Source: Leptotrichia sp. oral taxon 498 (GTDB lineage: Bacteria; Fusobacteriota; Fusobacteriia; Fusobacteriales; Leptotrichiaceae). From it: 64,000 nt of DNA. The notes under the pieces were generated by a model. It was given only the letters and a program-made list of their open reading frames with translations, was not told the DNA's origin and made no database searches. The stretch is taken from assembly GCF_002240055.1 (NCBI RefSeq), contig NZ_CP016753.1:310001-374000 (forward strand), given 5' to 3'. A program made the translations under genes and the position numbers. Shown here in pieces: positions 30,014 through 52,760 of the stretch (within the stretch, counting starts at the first letter, position 1; each line of letters starts with the position of its first letter).

Positions 30014-31111
30014 TTAATATTTCAACATCGCTTTTCCAATGTTTCTTATATTCAATGCCGCATTGTAATCTCTATCAATTTCAATCCCACAGCATTCACA
30101 TTTATAACTTCTTTCTGATAATTTCAGCTCCTCTTTAACGTTTCCACATCTACTACAAGTTTTCGACGATGGAAACCACTTATCTATCTTCAAAAATTGC
30201 TTTCCTAAAAACATCAGTTTATACTCAACCATCCTCAAAAACATTCCCCACCCATTATCTCCTATACTTTTACCAAAATTTAATGCCTGGCTCATCCCTT
30301 TTATATTCAAATCCTCAACAACCACAGCATTATATGTTTCAGACAATTTTTTCGATAATTTATGTAGAAAATCTCTTCGACAATTTTTGATATACTCATG
30401 TAATTTTGATATTTTCTCTTTTTGCTTATACCAATTTTTAGAAAATTTCACTTTTCTTGATAATGATTTCTGTAATTTTTTCAATTTTTTCTCCAGCATC
30501 CTAAAATATCTTGGATAATCAGCCCTTTGGTTTTCAGAACTGACAAATAATTCAGACATTGAAAAATCAAGTCCAATCACTTTATCATTACTTGGCATTT
30601 TTTGAATTTCTTTTTCAAATTCCGTCAAAACAGAAACATAGTAATTTCCATTACTGTTTGTCAATGTTACTGACTTTATCTTGTAATCCTTCGGTATTTC
30701 TCTATGATATTTTAATTTTACTCTTTTCAATTTTGGCAAAACCAAATATTTATTTTCCTCAATTCGTATCGAATTATTCACACAATTTGTCGTATAACTT
30801 TTAACACTATTCTTTTTAGATTTGAACCTTGGAAACTTTGCTCTCTTCTGAAAAAAGTTCGTAAACGATCGTCTTACATTTAATTGAGCATTTGAAAGTG
30901 CCAGACTATCTACTTCTTTCAAAAATTGGTTTTCACTTTTTAAACTGGCAGGTGTAATTATTTTATTTTTTCCAGTCTCTTCATAAATTTTATTCGCAGT
31001 GTACAAAATTGTATTGTAAACAAAACGGACACATCCAAAAGTCTTATTTATCAATAATTCCTGCTCCTTATTTGGGTAAATTCTGTATTTGAATGCTAAA
31101 TTATATTTCAT
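30014..31111 (-). CDS. tnpB: RNA-guided endonuclease TnpB (IS200/IS605 family)
   Basis: The 365-residue protein has the usual N-terminal helix-turn-helix domain ('YRIYPNKEQELLINKTFG'), a RuvC-like nuclease with Asp in 'VIGLDFSMSELF', Glu in 'NAVVVEDLNIKGM' and Asp in 'DRDYNAALNIRN', and a four-Cys zinc finger ('CSRCGNVK ... CECCG'). All catalytic residues are present, so it may be an active RNA-guided nuclease. GGAGGTG precedes the ATG. Confidence 0.93.
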   Translation of the reverse strand: MKYNLAFKYRIYPNKEQELLINKTFGCVRFVYNTILYTANKIYEETGKNKIITPASLKSENQFLKEVDSLALSNAQLNVRRSFTNFFQKRAKFPRFKSKKNSVKSYTTNCVNNSIRIEENKYLVLPKLKRVKLKYHREIPKDYKIKSVTLTNSNGNYYVSVLTEFEKEIQKMPSNDKVIGLDFSMSELFVSSENQRADYPRYFRMLEKKLKKLQKSLSRKVKFSKNWYKQKEKISKLHEYIKNCRRDFLHKLSKKLSETYNAVVVEDLNIKGMSQALNFGKSIGDNGWGMFLRMVEYKLMFLGKQFLKIDKWFPSSKTCSRCGNVKEELKLSERSYKCECCGIEIDRDYNAALNIRNIGKAMLKY

Positions 31112-48261: not shown

Positions 48262-48353
48262 ACTTAACATACGTAAAAATTCTGTGATAAAACCACAGTT
48301 CATTTTTTTATGCAGATTATTTTCTCCCTTCCCAGAAAATTTTATATTGCAAA

Positions 48354-48508
48354 GATTACAGGCAAGTCTCCTGACTAACTTCTTCCTACTCGTATCCTTC
48401 CCAAAAATTTTTTTATTTTCAGTGGCTATACACTTTCGTCCATTTCACAGTAGTGGTGGCTGTATCGGATTTTAACCGATTTCCTTATTAAGTTAAAAAA
48501 CACCTGTA
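48354..48508 (-). promoter_or_regulatory. Cobalamin riboswitch (B12 element)
   Basis: On the minus strand the aptamer reads from GATACAGGTG through 'AAATCGGTTAAAATCCGAT', 'AGCCACCACTACTGTGAAAT', 'AGCCACTGAAAA', 'GGAAGGATACGAGTAGGAAG' to the B12 box 'AGTCAGGAGACTTGCCTG'. All these are the conserved blocks of cobalamin riboswitches. It sits in the ~390-base leader of cbiM and should shut off cobalt import when adenosylcobalamin is plentiful. Confidence 0.93.
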
Positions 48509-48587
48509 TCTTTTTTATTATAACACATATTATAGTTTTGTCAATCGAAAAGCTAATATATAAAAACAAACTAAAAAAATAGTTTTT

Positions 48588-50206: not shown

Positions 50207-50677
50207 CTATCTTTTTATAATCACAACATTCATTCCAAATTTTTTCTCATAATCTTTCAATTTGCTAACTCTAAATTCGTAGATTTTCTCATTTTCATAA
50301 GAAAGATTTTCTCCAACAAAAATTTTTGCATTTTCAAAACCGTTTTCAAACAATTTCTTTGCAATATTCTGTGGCGTATTTTTACTAAAATCTGTGAGTA
50401 ATCCAATTTTTTCATATTCCCTCAATTTTGAAACATAATCAAAATTTTTTCCATGAACACTCGAAATATAAGCATCATTCCAAAACTCTGAAATTTTTGC
50501 AAACATATATTGTAGTGACGAAATTCCAGCAACCACTTCCAATTCATTATCACAAAAATGTTTTTTTATAAAAGCTAAAAAGCTGTAAAAACCAGTATCT
50601 CCAGAAACTACTAAAGATATTTTCTTATCTCTATTTTCATTGATAAATTCTATAACTTTACTCAAATCAGCTGAAAT
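50207..50677 (-). CDS. cbiE: cbiE, second exon (cobalt-precorrin-7 C5-methyltransferase, C-terminal part)
   Basis: After removal of the IStron this exon continues directly from the first, beginning 'ISADLSKVIEFINENR' and running 157 codons to the stop. It holds the CbiE core 'KISLVVSGDTGFYSFLAFIK', 'ELEVVAGISSLQYMFAKISE' and 'AYISSVHGKNFDY'. Without splicing it has no good start of its own (only an internal TTG) and no ribosome site. Joined to 52605-52760 it makes a 208-residue CbiE, the normal length of the family. Confidence 0.88.
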   Translation of the reverse strand: MSADLSKVIEFINENRDKKISLVVSGDTGFYSFLAFIKKHFCDNELEVVAGISSLQYMFAKISEFWNDAYISSVHGKNFDYVSKLREYEKIGLLTDFSKNTPQNIAKKLFENGFENAKIFVGENLSYENEKIYEFRVSKLKDYEKKFGMNVVIIKR

Positions 50678-50756
50678 CTGAACCTCCCACGACTAAAGTC
50701 GCAGAGTTCTAAAATCTTTAAAAATATTTAAAAATTTTCTAAGAAGTTTGATAGCT
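50678..50756 (-). ncRNA. Right end: guide-RNA scaffold overlapping the intron 3' splice site
   Basis: The 79 bases between the tnpB stop and the terminal G hold the right-end stem CGACTTTAGTCG (50688-50701 region) and the final GGTTCAG. The same nucleotides would serve as the 3' part of the TnpB guide RNA and as the intron 3' end, with the following cbiE bases as guide. Splicing and guide-RNA maturation therefore compete for one RNA. Confidence 0.5.
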
Positions 50757-52004
50757 TTACACTACCCTTATTCTTTTAGGCGTGTTCAGCTCACCTCTAT
50801 TGTATAGGACGCTTAAGTCCACAACTTTACTTTTTCTTAATATATTTAATGCTCCATTACAATCCGCATTTATGAGTTTACCTGCGCTTGTTTGATATAG
50901 TCCTCTTTTTATCCTTTTTCCACTGAATTTATATTCTTGCGGATTTTCTTTATCATATATTGGGATTTCATCTCCATCAAAGAAACTTGCTTTTGATGTA
51001 TAACTCTCTTCTTGTAGCTTAAATTCTATTCCATATAGTTTACATAGATATATTAATTTATCTCTTAATTTCCCATATGGTATATTTACAAAGTTTTGAT
51101 TATTTATACTTCCTATATTTGAATTTCTTTGAAAATCTTCATTATATCCTAAAACTATCTTTCCTATATCATTATTAAGACAATAATTTATAATTATTCT
51201 TGCTGCTTTTGAAAGATAATCTTCTATACGGTTATTTCTCTTTCTAGCTATTTTCTTTTGCCTTAATGTTATATGCTCTATCTTTTGCTTATCTTTAATA
51301 CTTTGTAATTTTGCATTTATCTTGTTATAGTATTGATTTATTGATTTTAATTTTCTACCATCTATTAGGAATGATGCCCCATTATTAGTTACACAAGTAC
51401 AAAGATTATCTATACCTAAATCAATTCCTAGTGCATTTTCTTTATTTAATTCCCTTTGAACTTCTTCTACCTCATAAATGTATTGAATTTCAAAGTACCT
51501 GGAATGTTGTTTTGGTATTATTCTAATCTCTTTTATCTTCTTGTCTTTTAATACTGGCGGCAGTTTTATTGCGATTTCCTTATGTGTCTTTCTAAATGAA
51601 TTTGAATAAGGAACTATCAGCATATCATCTTTTAATCTTACAAAACCTATAACAAGAGTTGTAAATCCATCTTTAGCAAGATATTTAGGTAATTTTATTT
51701 TTTTATTATCATATTGACCATTCTTAGCAAGTTTTAAAAGTCCAAAAAATGATTTGAAACTTCCGTCTGCTTCTTTTAGAATTTGTTGAGCCATATTAGA
51801 ATTTAATTTTTTATAGTTCTCACTATTTTTAAGCATTTTATAGTTTTCGTTATAACTTAAATACTTTTTCTTATTAAAATAATACTGTCTAATATTATAT
51901 ATAGCTTCATTAGTTAAGTTCTTGGCTATATGAGATAAATATTTTAAATTTCTAAACTCTTTTTTACTAAGATGTTTTACTTGTTGTTTTAAAGTTAAAT
52001 ACAT
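50757..52004 (-). CDS. tnpB: TnpB-type RNA-guided nuclease of the IStron, lacking the zinc finger
   Basis: ATG 52004 behind AAAAGGAGG is chosen; a GTG 9 bases earlier overlaps that site. The 415-residue protein has a RuvC-like nuclease with Asp in 'ALGIDLGIDNLCTCVTNNG', a middle acidic region 'KIVLGYNEDFQRNSNIG' and Asp in 'LINADCNGALNILRKSK'. The usual four-Cys zinc finger is replaced by 'EESYTSKASFFDGDEIPIYD', as in a distinct TnpB subgroup. Whether the middle acidic residue aligns as Glu or Asp is uncertain, so activity needs testing. It is only distantly related to the other TnpB at 30014. Confidence 0.9.
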   Translation of the reverse strand: MYLTLKQQVKHLSKKEFRNLKYLSHIAKNLTNEAIYNIRQYYFNKKKYLSYNENYKMLKNSENYKKLNSNMAQQILKEADGSFKSFFGLLKLAKNGQYDNKKIKLPKYLAKDGFTTLVIGFVRLKDDMLIVPYSNSFRKTHKEIAIKLPPVLKDKKIKEIRIIPKQHSRYFEIQYIYEVEEVQRELNKENALGIDLGIDNLCTCVTNNGASFLIDGRKLKSINQYYNKINAKLQSIKDKQKIEHITLRQKKIARKRNNRIEDYLSKAARIIINYCLNNDIGKIVLGYNEDFQRNSNIGSINNQNFVNIPYGKLRDKLIYLCKLYGIEFKLQEESYTSKASFFDGDEIPIYDKENPQEYKFSGKRIKRGLYQTSAGKLINADCNGALNILRKSKVVDLSVLYNRGELNTPKRIRVV

Positions 52005-52199
52005 AGATATCACCTCCTTTTCATCAGAGATATTATACTATATATCCTACATTTTATCTATTTTTTTTAAATATTTTTAAAGTTTTTAAAACCCCACAAC
52101 AGTGGGAAGTGTCGTTCACATAAGTGCGCTACTACTTATGCAGTTCTCATGGCATATATACTCCTTAATAAATTAAGGAGATTAGCCTTGAACTTCTTG

Positions 52200-52604
52200 T
52201 TATCTCTAACAAGCACAGACTATATCTTATCCATATCCTATTTCAAGGACTTAGGCGAAACCACTTCCAATACCAACCGCTTGTATTGTACTCCCCTCAC
52301 GAGGGATAGTCGTTGAACTTTCCTTTTCAGGCTTAGCTGCTGATTGTCTATTATCATAATGTTTAGGATTTAACCTTGCACCATCTAGTATATTTTTTCT
52401 GCTTTCGCTACCTTCACACTTATACCATATTTTAACGAAGGTATTATGTTGTGGTTATACTAGCTTTAAGAGTTCCCAGCAGTTCAGTTTCTTTGTTGCA
52501 CAGTTTTTCTTCTGTGTCTACATACAAGTTTCCCTATATGCTTACTAAAATTTTTGTGCAATTCATCTCACGACTAAAAGTCGCGAGTGTTCTTGCACTA
52601 TTTA
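52200..52604 (-). ncRNA. Group I intron catalytic core in the IStron leader
   Basis: In minus-strand order: internal guide TTTAGTAAG (52549-52541), element P 'CTGCTGGGAACTC' (52483-52471), Q 'CAATCAGCAGCTAAGCCTG' (52346-52328), R 'GTTCAACGACTA' (52318-52307) and S 'AAGATATAGTCTGTGC' (52228-52213), then hairpin CTTGTTA-GAGA-TAACAAG (P9). P4 (CTGCTG/CAGCAG) and P7 (GACTA/TAGTC) pair perfectly. The guide pairs with the exon-intron junction TTTAT|TAAA over 9 base pairs with U.G at the splice site. P3 and P8 were not drawn in detail. Confidence 0.88.
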
Positions 52605-52760
52605 ATAAAAATATTCTTTATTTTTAGTATACTTTCCCAAACTTTCCAAATGTCTTTTCCCGCCGATTATCACATCACTTTCTTCTATTTTTTTCAAAAC
52701 TATTGGCAATGTATAATCAAGATTTCCAGGTCCCAAACCCAATATTTTTATTTTTTCCAT
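52605..52760 (-). CDS. cbiE: cbiE, first exon (cobalt-precorrin-7 C5-methyltransferase, N-terminal part)
   Basis: ATG 52760 (GGAGAAAAG upstream) opens 52 codons with the tetrapyrrole-methylase start 'KIKILGLGPGNLDYTLPIV' and 'SDVIIGGKRHLESLGKY', typical of CbiE. The exon ends ...TAT TTT TAT; unspliced mRNA would stop at a TAA one codon inside the element. Spliced, the frame continues at 50677. CbiE methylates C5 of cobalt-precorrin-7; the companion CbiT is not in the window. Confidence 0.88.

What the first reader, a model, noticed from the sequence alone, without database searches (positions are those of the whole stretch)
50678..52604. An IStron (group I intron plus tnpB transposon) sits in the vitamin B12 gene cbiE and leaves it in frame when removed
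The element has IS605-type ends and a tnpB gene, but also a complete set of group I intron core motifs. Joining base 52605 to base 50677 gives ...TAT TTT TAT|ATT TCA GCT..., reading KEYFY|ISADLSKV, and restores a 208-residue CbiE with no codon lost. A plain insertion would kill the gene; this one could be silent at the RNA level. IStrons are known mainly from Clostridia, so one interrupting a corrin gene in a probable Fusobacteriota genome looks new.
Basis: partly seen in the sequence, partly recalled or inferred. Interest (0 to 1): 0.95.

Follow-up and report, generated by a model that had tools for sequence, protein, structure and literature searches.

The report
Self-splicing transposon inside cbiE
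A mobile DNA element that also carries a self-removing RNA intron sits inside a vitamin B12 gene of a probable Leptotrichia; this kind of element is already known in the phylum, but its relatives here sit in many genes, one of them needed for DNA replication, so the removal step very probably works in the living cell.

Summary
An IStron (group I intron plus IS200/IS605-type tnpB) occupies 50678-52604, minus strand, inside cbiE. Joining the flanks gives a 208-residue CbiE. A close relative (G007) carries the empty site: the 23 bases around the join are identical (29 of 30 shown). The intron core is supported by covariation (22 of 58 pairs change on both sides) and by homology to an Rfam-recognised group I intron.

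The claim that it is new for Fusobacteriota is wrong: IStrons of Fusobacterium and Leptotrichia buccalis were published in 2007 and 2014.

The family context adds most. Of 61 related copies in 7 genomes of the genus I tested 59: 43 lie in an ORF, all sense, none antisense; frames agree in 30 of 30 testable cases. Intron-less derivatives with the same ends lie in an ORF in 2 of 19. One copy splits the only dnaB of genome G012. In three genomes cbiJ carries two ORF-less relatives of the intron, and in one of them a full IStron as third. This is hard to explain without splicing in vivo. No RNA was examined, and precise DNA excision would leave the same join. Class: new member of a known kind (group A IStron, TTTAT target).

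The parts
50678..52604 (-). whole IStron, 1927 nt (5' end at 52604, TAAATAG...; 3' end at 50678, ...GGTTCAG)
   Evidence: ends shared by 59 copies
52605..52760 (-). cbiE exon 1 (52 codons)
50207..50677 (-). cbiE exon 2 (156 codons and stop)
52605..52609 (-). target / 5' splice-site pentamer TTTAT
   Evidence: 58 of 59 copies
52567..52587 (-). left-end subterminal palindrome, lies inside the P1 extension
   Evidence: sequence; fold
52541..52545 (-). internal guide sequence GUAAG that pairs with the 5' exon UUUAU
   Evidence: 58 of 59 copies; co-changes with target TTGAT in relatives
52112..52604 (-). group I intron domain, P1 to P9.2, ending in the GAACGA motif (52112-52117) after which the IS part begins
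52336..52345 (-). core motif Q (3' strand of P4)
52307..52318 (-). core motif R (5' strand of P7)
52218..52228 (-). core motif S (3' strand of P7)
52064..52092 (.). inverted-repeat arm on the 5' side of tnpB, 29 nt, pairs with 50706-50734 (93%)
50706..50734 (.). inverted-repeat arm on the 3' side of tnpB
50757..52004 (-). tnpB; ATG at 52004 with an AGGAGG upstream is the likelier start (415 codons); the ORF list gives GTG at 52013 (418)
   Evidence: choice of start is inference
50690..50701 (-). right-end palindrome CGACTTTAGTCG; in IS605-type elements this end also forms the 3' end of the TnpB guide RNA (recalled, not tested)
   Evidence: sequence; same motif at many places of six genomes
50678..50681 (-). 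terminal TCAG with the last intron G (3' splice site)
   Evidence: 59 of 59 copies

Best explanation
A group A IStron with target TTTAT moved into cbiE as an IS200/IS605-type single-strand transposon, without target duplication. It has no tnpA of its own, so TnpA acted in trans. In the cbiE transcript its 5' part folds as a group I (IA2-like) ribozyme: the guide sequence GUAAG pairs with UUUAU at the end of exon 1 (P1), guanosine attacks after that U, and the freed exon joins the base after the last intron G. This gives an uninterrupted cbiE message. Shown by sequence: boundaries, empty site, core, guide-target co-change, ORF restoration. Inferred: that splicing happens in the cell. Recalled from other systems: the chemistry of splicing, TnpA in trans, and TnpB with a guide from the right end recognising empty sites next to TTTAT.
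For: Empty site in G007. cbiE exons under constraint between G000 and G007, dN/dS 0.083. Covariation: 96.5% of 1328 cells paired, 22 of 58 pairs changed on both sides, against 30-41% and 1-11 pairs when the partners are slid. Guide-target co-change: UUUAU with GUAAG in 58 of 59 copies, UUGAU with GUCAG or GUCAA in 14 of 14 relatives (13 by script, L132 by eye). Family: 43 of 59 copies within an ORF, all sense; frames agree in 30 of 30 testable; intron-less derivatives 2 of 19, Fisher p 1.8e-6. The only dnaB of G012 is split at profile positions 310|311, unsplit in 12 other genomes. cbiJ is split twice at the same sites in three genomes and the G012 product, joined across all three elements, matches precorrin-6A reductase end to end. 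Homology of 74% over 15% of the query to a Listeria phage segment that Rfam calls Intron_gpI, 66.4 bits; model R1, built from these introns, finds it with 106.8 bits.
Against: No RNA was examined. DNA excision would give the same join. Sense orientation is partly a by-product of replication-strand preference: in G009 13 of 14 plus copies and 12 of 14 minus copies lie in opposite halves of the chromosome, halves that I drew after seeing the positions, and 167 of 203 flanking ORFs share the element's strand. Allowing for that, 0 antisense of 43 (or of about 40 independent sites) still has probability about 0.0002-0.0016. 16 of 59 copies failed the strict in-ORF test. Rfam does not recognise the element. 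One of the five covariation measures, further pair types, does not exceed shuffles (377 of 500 as high). The cbiE insertion may be too recent for the exon constraint to be informative.
Confidence: 0.86

Rival explanations
1. The element is a dead or non-splicing insertion that simply knocked out cbiE.
For: No RNA data; Rfam misses it; 8 of 59 copies have a shortened tnpB and one (L079) has lost part of the ribozyme.
Against: Core and guide sequence intact here, exon dN/dS 0.083, intragenic and sense pattern unlike the intron-less derivatives, a copy inside the only dnaB of G012. The copy with a deleted core, L079, lies 6 nt from the end of an ORF, whereas L049, which lost most of tnpB but kept the intron, lies inside an ORF.
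Confidence: 0.07
2. Gene function is restored by precise DNA excision in part of the population (TnpA in trans), not by RNA splicing.
For: IS200/IS605 excision reseals the same join (recalled); four intact tnpA genes lie elsewhere in this genome.
Against: The ribozyme core is conserved with covariation, which excision does not need. The six cbiJ introns lack the IS605-type end palindromes by inspection yet stay at the same sites in three genomes with conserved exons (dN/dS 0.21 for G011 against G012; the script failed for G006). DnaB is needed in every cell (recalled). In my end-motif scan none of the four tnpA loci of this genome has ends like the IStron's.
Confidence: 0.05
3. The two cbiE pieces are translated separately and work as a split protein; the element's GGGAGG near its 3' end serves as ribosome site.
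For: A 152-aa TTG-start ORF covers exon 2 and alone matches CbiE from position 54.
Against: The start lies 12 nt beyond the join, about 17 nt from GGAGG; the 52 N-terminal residues would be a separate peptide; many different proteins (DnaB, SmpB, RuvB, QueA) would all have to tolerate arbitrary splits.
Confidence: 0.02

Closest known systems
Group A IStrons of Tourasse 2014 (CdISt1, FnISt1, LbISt1 and others; PMC4227781)
   Same: IA2-like intron with P7.1, P7.2, P9.2, then a GAACGA motif and the IS part; T-rich target pentamer (TTTAT is named); 3' TCAG; U before the 5' splice site; no target duplication; end palindromes; tnpB present, tnpA missing or truncated
   Different: Target TTTAT with guide GUAAG, whereas the probable LbISt1 (L132, in G001) has TTGAT with GUCAG and 73% identity over intron bases 58-416; the inverted repeat around tnpB is 29 nt and AU-rich, against 6-10 bp balanced given for group A; up to 28 copies per genome against 1 for LbISt1 in that table (CdISt1 has 9-24)
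Clostridioides phage ES-S-0173-01 IStron (L174, from the phage collection)
   Same: Intron 71.8% identical over 15-394, tnpB, TTGAT target, GGGAGGTTCAG end
   Different: Different tnpB with CxxC zinc-finger motifs (by eye); sits after a 262-aa ORF that looks like a terminase (my reading)
IS200/IS605 elements such as ISDra2/IS8301
   Same: Subterminal palindromes, T-rich 5' target, tnpB, no target duplication (as described in PMC4227781)
   Different: No intron
Phage group I introns of Listeria and Staphylococcus phages
   Same: Homologous ribozyme core: Listeria phage L175 is an Rfam hit and scores 106.8 bits with R1; Staphylococcus phage L173 scores 38.8 bits with R1 but is not an Rfam hit
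   Different: No transposon part seen in the short stretches examined
Group I intron with a MITE in dsrA of Thiomargarita (PMC4853749, passages read)
   Same: IA2 intron in a key protein gene, joined to a non-autonomous mobile element
   Different: One gene, unrelated host, no tnpB

Membership tests
[quoted passage not shown]
   59 of 59 copies share both ends; empty site
IStron (group A) | inserted after TTGAT, ATTAT or TTTAT, 3' end TCAG, variable 3' flank, no target duplication | tested here: met
   58 of 59 TTTAT, 59 of 59 TCAG; 3' flanks variable though with no C at +1
IStron (group A) | IS part begins downstream of P9.2 after a GAACGA-like motif | tested here: met
   GAACGA in 14 of 14 copies looked at, of 59 held
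IStron (group A) | ORF flanked by a short (6-10 bp) balanced inverted repeat | tested here: not met
   a 29-nt AU-rich repeat is found; the paper gives this as a subtle difference between groups, not as a criterion, so it does not exclude membership
IStron (group A) | self-splicing in vivo or in vitro | not testable with these tools
   indirect evidence only
Group I intron, IA2 | P3-P4-P6-P7 core with R/S pairing | tested here: met
   P3, P5, P6, P7.2, P9, P9.2 covary; P7 pairs in all 23 but never varies, P4 nearly so
Group I intron, IA2 | P7.1 and P7.2 hairpins, extended P9 domain | tested here: met
   P7.2 and P9.2 covary, P7.1 pairs in 93% of cells without double changes
[quoted passage not shown]
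Group I intron, IA2 | match to Rfam RF00028 | tested here: not met
   uninformative because IStrons L132 and L174 are missed too, while the homologous L175 is recognised
IS200/IS605 | Y1 transposase tnpA within the element | tested here: not met
   tnpB is the only large ORF; tnpA is elsewhere in the genome, so at most a non-autonomous member
IS200/IS605 | tnpB of the RNA-guided nuclease family | tested here: met
   NF040570 207 bits, cut-off 100

The most novel reading that the evidence does not exclude
These genomes have become dependent on transposon splicing: at least one depends on an IStron for its only dnaB. A route from mobile IStron to fixed intron is visible in cbiJ, where two ORF-less introns without transposon end palindromes have stayed in place in three species while a third, still complete, IStron has joined them in one. 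Insertions also recur in cobalamin genes (cbiE, cbiJ, cbiN, a cobalamin adenosyltransferase start codon) and at three different sites of queA, which could mean splicing-based control; this last part is post hoc and weak.
Probability: 0.5. Interest if true: 0.75.

Novelty: new member of a known kind. Interest (0 to 1): 0.6.

Why it matters
IStrons are the natural case where a transposon pays for its damage with a ribozyme. Here copies with the intron sit in genes, in sense, while derivatives with the same ends but no intron sit mostly between genes: a natural control that separates the effect of splicing from that of target choice. A copy in a single dnaB makes in vivo splicing directly testable. 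Derivatives of 302-320 nt with the same deletion at different TTTAT sites suggest that neither tnpA nor tnpB is needed in cis for movement, which bears on the question left open in 2014 of how IStrons without ORF A move.

Tried and rejected
Rfam on the window (gathering) and on the element (E<=10): no group I hit; judged blind after controls.

Purine preference at +1 (45 of 59, no C; chi-square p 1e-5 against other TTTAT sites in the flanks) looked like a 3' splice-site rule; rejected because the intron-less derivatives show it too (16 of 19, no C), so it belongs to transposition.

Stop-codon phase: sense insertions are 26 in phase 2, 12 in phase 0, 5 in phase 1; background 84, 99, 38 (p 0.01). 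This does not fit the idea in the 2014 paper that phase 0 is preferred.

gmk of G009 (its only match over the cut-off) has its start codon split by copy L064. I did not use it as essential-gene evidence, because a non-standard start downstream cannot be excluded.

PDB sequence search with TnpB: no hit at E<=0.001.

Literature: IStron with TnpB, 2022 onwards: 0 papers held; IStron with dnaB: one, Thiomargarita; Leptotrichia with group I intron: four listed, of which by title only the 2014 survey is relevant; three introns in a bacterial gene: seven listed, none opened. PMC3984707 and PMC4853749: passages only. A 2024 study on conflict between IStron introns and guide RNAs is recalled, not held here.

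Full report
WHAT IS THERE. On the minus strand of the window, 50678-52604 holds a 1927-nt element between two parts of cbiE. The 5' part (52112-52604) is a group I intron domain, the middle is tnpB (50757-52004 or 52013), and the 3' part holds the right-end palindrome and the terminal TCAG. The joined exons give 208 aa that match CbiE over the whole NCBIfam profile. The genome G000 is 2.15 Mb in one contig and holds three full copies. It is probably a Leptotrichia: G001 of the same genus has 2,465,610 bases, which I recall as the size of the L. buccalis genome, and its element (L132, 1755 nt, TTGAT target) fits LbISt1 (1760 bp in the 2014 table).

BOUNDARIES AND EMPTY SITE. A DNA search of 13 genomes of the genus shows 61 related copies in 7 genomes (G009 28, G012 15, G007 6, G011 5, G000 3, G006 3, G008 1; my count from its table). 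An RNA-model search gives 75 cores in 8 of 13 genomes, which I assign as 61 plus 8 of a second family plus 6 in cbiJ. I analysed 59 of the 61: one (G009:1477389) was first left out by oversight and one is an ORF-less 520-nt copy (L084) between genes. The 59 share both ends; 58 follow TTTAT and 59 end in TCAG. cbiE is unsplit in 12 of 12 other genomes. In G007, 98% identical in CbiE, the DNA at the site is the predicted join, identical over the 23 bases around it; only G000 and G007 carry TTTAT there. cbiE of G000 and G007 differ with dN/dS 0.083.

THE RIBOZYME. I aligned 23 sequences (13 of this family, 4 of the second family, 6 cbiJ introns) and wrote an IA2-type structure from the sequence and recalled anatomy. 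96.5% of 1328 cells form standard pairs, and 22 of 58 pairs have changes on both sides; slid partners give 30-41% and 1-11 pairs. Four of the five measures exceed all 500 shuffles; the fifth, further pair types, does not (377 of 500 as high). P3, P5, P6, P7.2, P9 and P9.2 covary. P7 never varies and so is neither supported nor opposed by covariation. P2.1 pairs in only 71% of cells; misalignment is possible but was not tested. The structure was derived from one of the sequences, which favours it somewhat over slid versions. P1 was read separately: exon UUUAU pairs with GUAAG, and in the 14 relatives inserted after TTGAT the guide is GUCAG or, once, GUCAA, a change on both sides. Homology to a Listeria phage segment that Rfam recognises as a group I intron ties the core to that class. 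Rfam itself misses this element, two other IStrons and the two cbiJ introns of L134.

A NATURAL TEST OF SPLICING. For each of the 59 copies I joined the flanks and asked for an ORF of at least 100 aa with at least 15 nt on both sides. 43 are sense, 0 antisense, 16 neither. Where both flanks are open for 150 nt or more (30 of 59), the two frames agree in 30 of 30. As control I used 19 intron-less derivatives with the same kind of ends (8 of 302-320 nt, 10 of 44-45 nt that join the two ends, 1 of the second family): 2 of 19 in an ORF, one of those with a degraded left end, none antisense. Fisher p 1.8e-6. Seven fetched loci were not used because one end was not found (L105, L108, L122, L123, L124) or was not examined (L140, L141). 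The short fusions may have arisen in place rather than moved, and derivatives inside genes would be purged, which is the point of the comparison. Sites are not all independent: nagB is hit at one site in three genomes and queA at one site in two, so the 43 stand for about 40 events. Four copies examined later: L178 and two of G014, a genome of another genus of the family (L179, L180), are sense in ORFs; the third of G014 (L181) splits the start codon of a cobalamin adenosyltransferase. Of the 16 that failed the strict test, a closer look places one in cbiJ (L069), two at a split ATG (L064 gmk, L066), one between a likely ribosome site and start codon (L070), one in a short ORF (L041), four within 30 nt of an ORF's end (L052, L058, L059, L079), and leaves seven between genes or unclear (L044, L046, L053, L054, L055, L056, L063). 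These are by eye.

CONFOUNDING. IS200/IS605 elements prefer one strand at the replication fork (recalled). In G009 copy orientation follows the chromosome half (13 of 14 and 12 of 14; halves drawn after seeing the data), and 167 of 203 flanking ORFs are on the element's strand. So sense bias alone is weak. After allowing for it, no antisense copy among 43, or among about 40 sites, has a probability of 0.0002-0.0016. The contrast with the intron-less derivatives does not rest on orientation.

ESSENTIAL AND MULTIPLE. The only DnaB of G012 is split at profile positions 310|311 with nothing lost; the 12 other genomes have it whole (a weak second match of 25-28 bits occurs in each of the 13). An assembly of a mixed population cannot be excluded. 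Joined products of five other copies match SmpB, RuvB, QueA, NagB and methylenetetrahydrofolate reductase; names of further genes are by eye. cbiJ is in one piece in 10 genomes (in G009 with one internal stop) and split in G006, G011 and G012 at the same two TTGAT sites by introns of 532-648 nt without tnpB. Their ends lack the IS605-type palindromes by inspection, though some keep an AT-rich hairpin and a TTCAG end. In G012 a complete IStron sits in the last exon, and removing all three gives 263 aa that match precorrin-6A reductase end to end. I did not see a bacterial protein gene with three group I introns in the one listing searched for it (none opened), a narrow search.

MOBILITY. No tnpA lies in the element. 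Y1 transposase genes occur in 10 of 13 genomes, four of them in G000 and none beside an IStron copy there. In my end-motif scan of ten tnpA loci, four of them of G000, only two, both of G009, show ends like the IStron's, so the transposase for G000 is not identified. tnpB is at least 400 codons in 51 of 59 copies.

KNOWN OR NEW. IStrons in Fusobacteria, Leptotrichia included, are in print. The 2014 survey gives 58% of insertions as intragenic and names TTTAT as a group A target. This element is a new member. The additions are its high copy number in some genomes, the intron-less control set, the dnaB insertion and the introns of cbiJ.

LIMITS. No RNA, no long reads, genomes unnamed. The recurrence in cobalamin genes is post hoc and was not tested against an expectation.

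Noticed in passing
L134 4968-5513 and 5931-6462 (minus); L135 2901-3446, 3864-4409; L069 2268-2915, 3333-3874, 4001-5900: cbiJ of three genomes holds two ORF-less relatives of the IStron intron at the same TTGAT sites; in G012 a full IStron is the third.
   Followed up: yes
L072 (G012:C1:689546 region): A family member splits the only dnaB of G012.
   Followed up: yes
L043, L065, L085, L096: queA is hit at three different sites in four genomes (L096 named by profile, the others by eye).
   Followed up: partly
L102, L104, L106, L107, L109-L112; L103, L113-L121: Internally deleted derivatives of 302-320 nt, and 44-45-nt fusions of left and right end, mostly between genes.
   Followed up: yes
3' flanks of 59 copies and 19 derivatives: First base after the element is a purine in 45 of 59 copies and 16 of 19 derivatives, never C: a target preference of transposition.
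   Followed up: partly
L064, L066, L181: The element splits an ATG start codon (AT|G) behind a likely ribosome site, in gmk, a methyltransferase-like gene (by eye) and a cobalamin adenosyltransferase, so splicing would create the start codon.
   Followed up: partly
window 48344-48522 (minus): Cobalamin riboswitch (Rfam RF00174, 88.9 bits) between the CobQ/CbiP-type gene and the cbiM-like gene downstream of cbiE.
   Followed up: no
window 30014-31111 (minus): A second, intron-free TnpB-like ORF with CxxC motifs (by eye) between cobalamin genes.
   Followed up: no
tnpB of this family against L132: This family's TnpB lacks the C-terminal CxxC zinc-finger motifs that the probable LbISt1 TnpB shows (by eye), although the introns are homologous: possible exchange of the IS part.
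   Followed up: no
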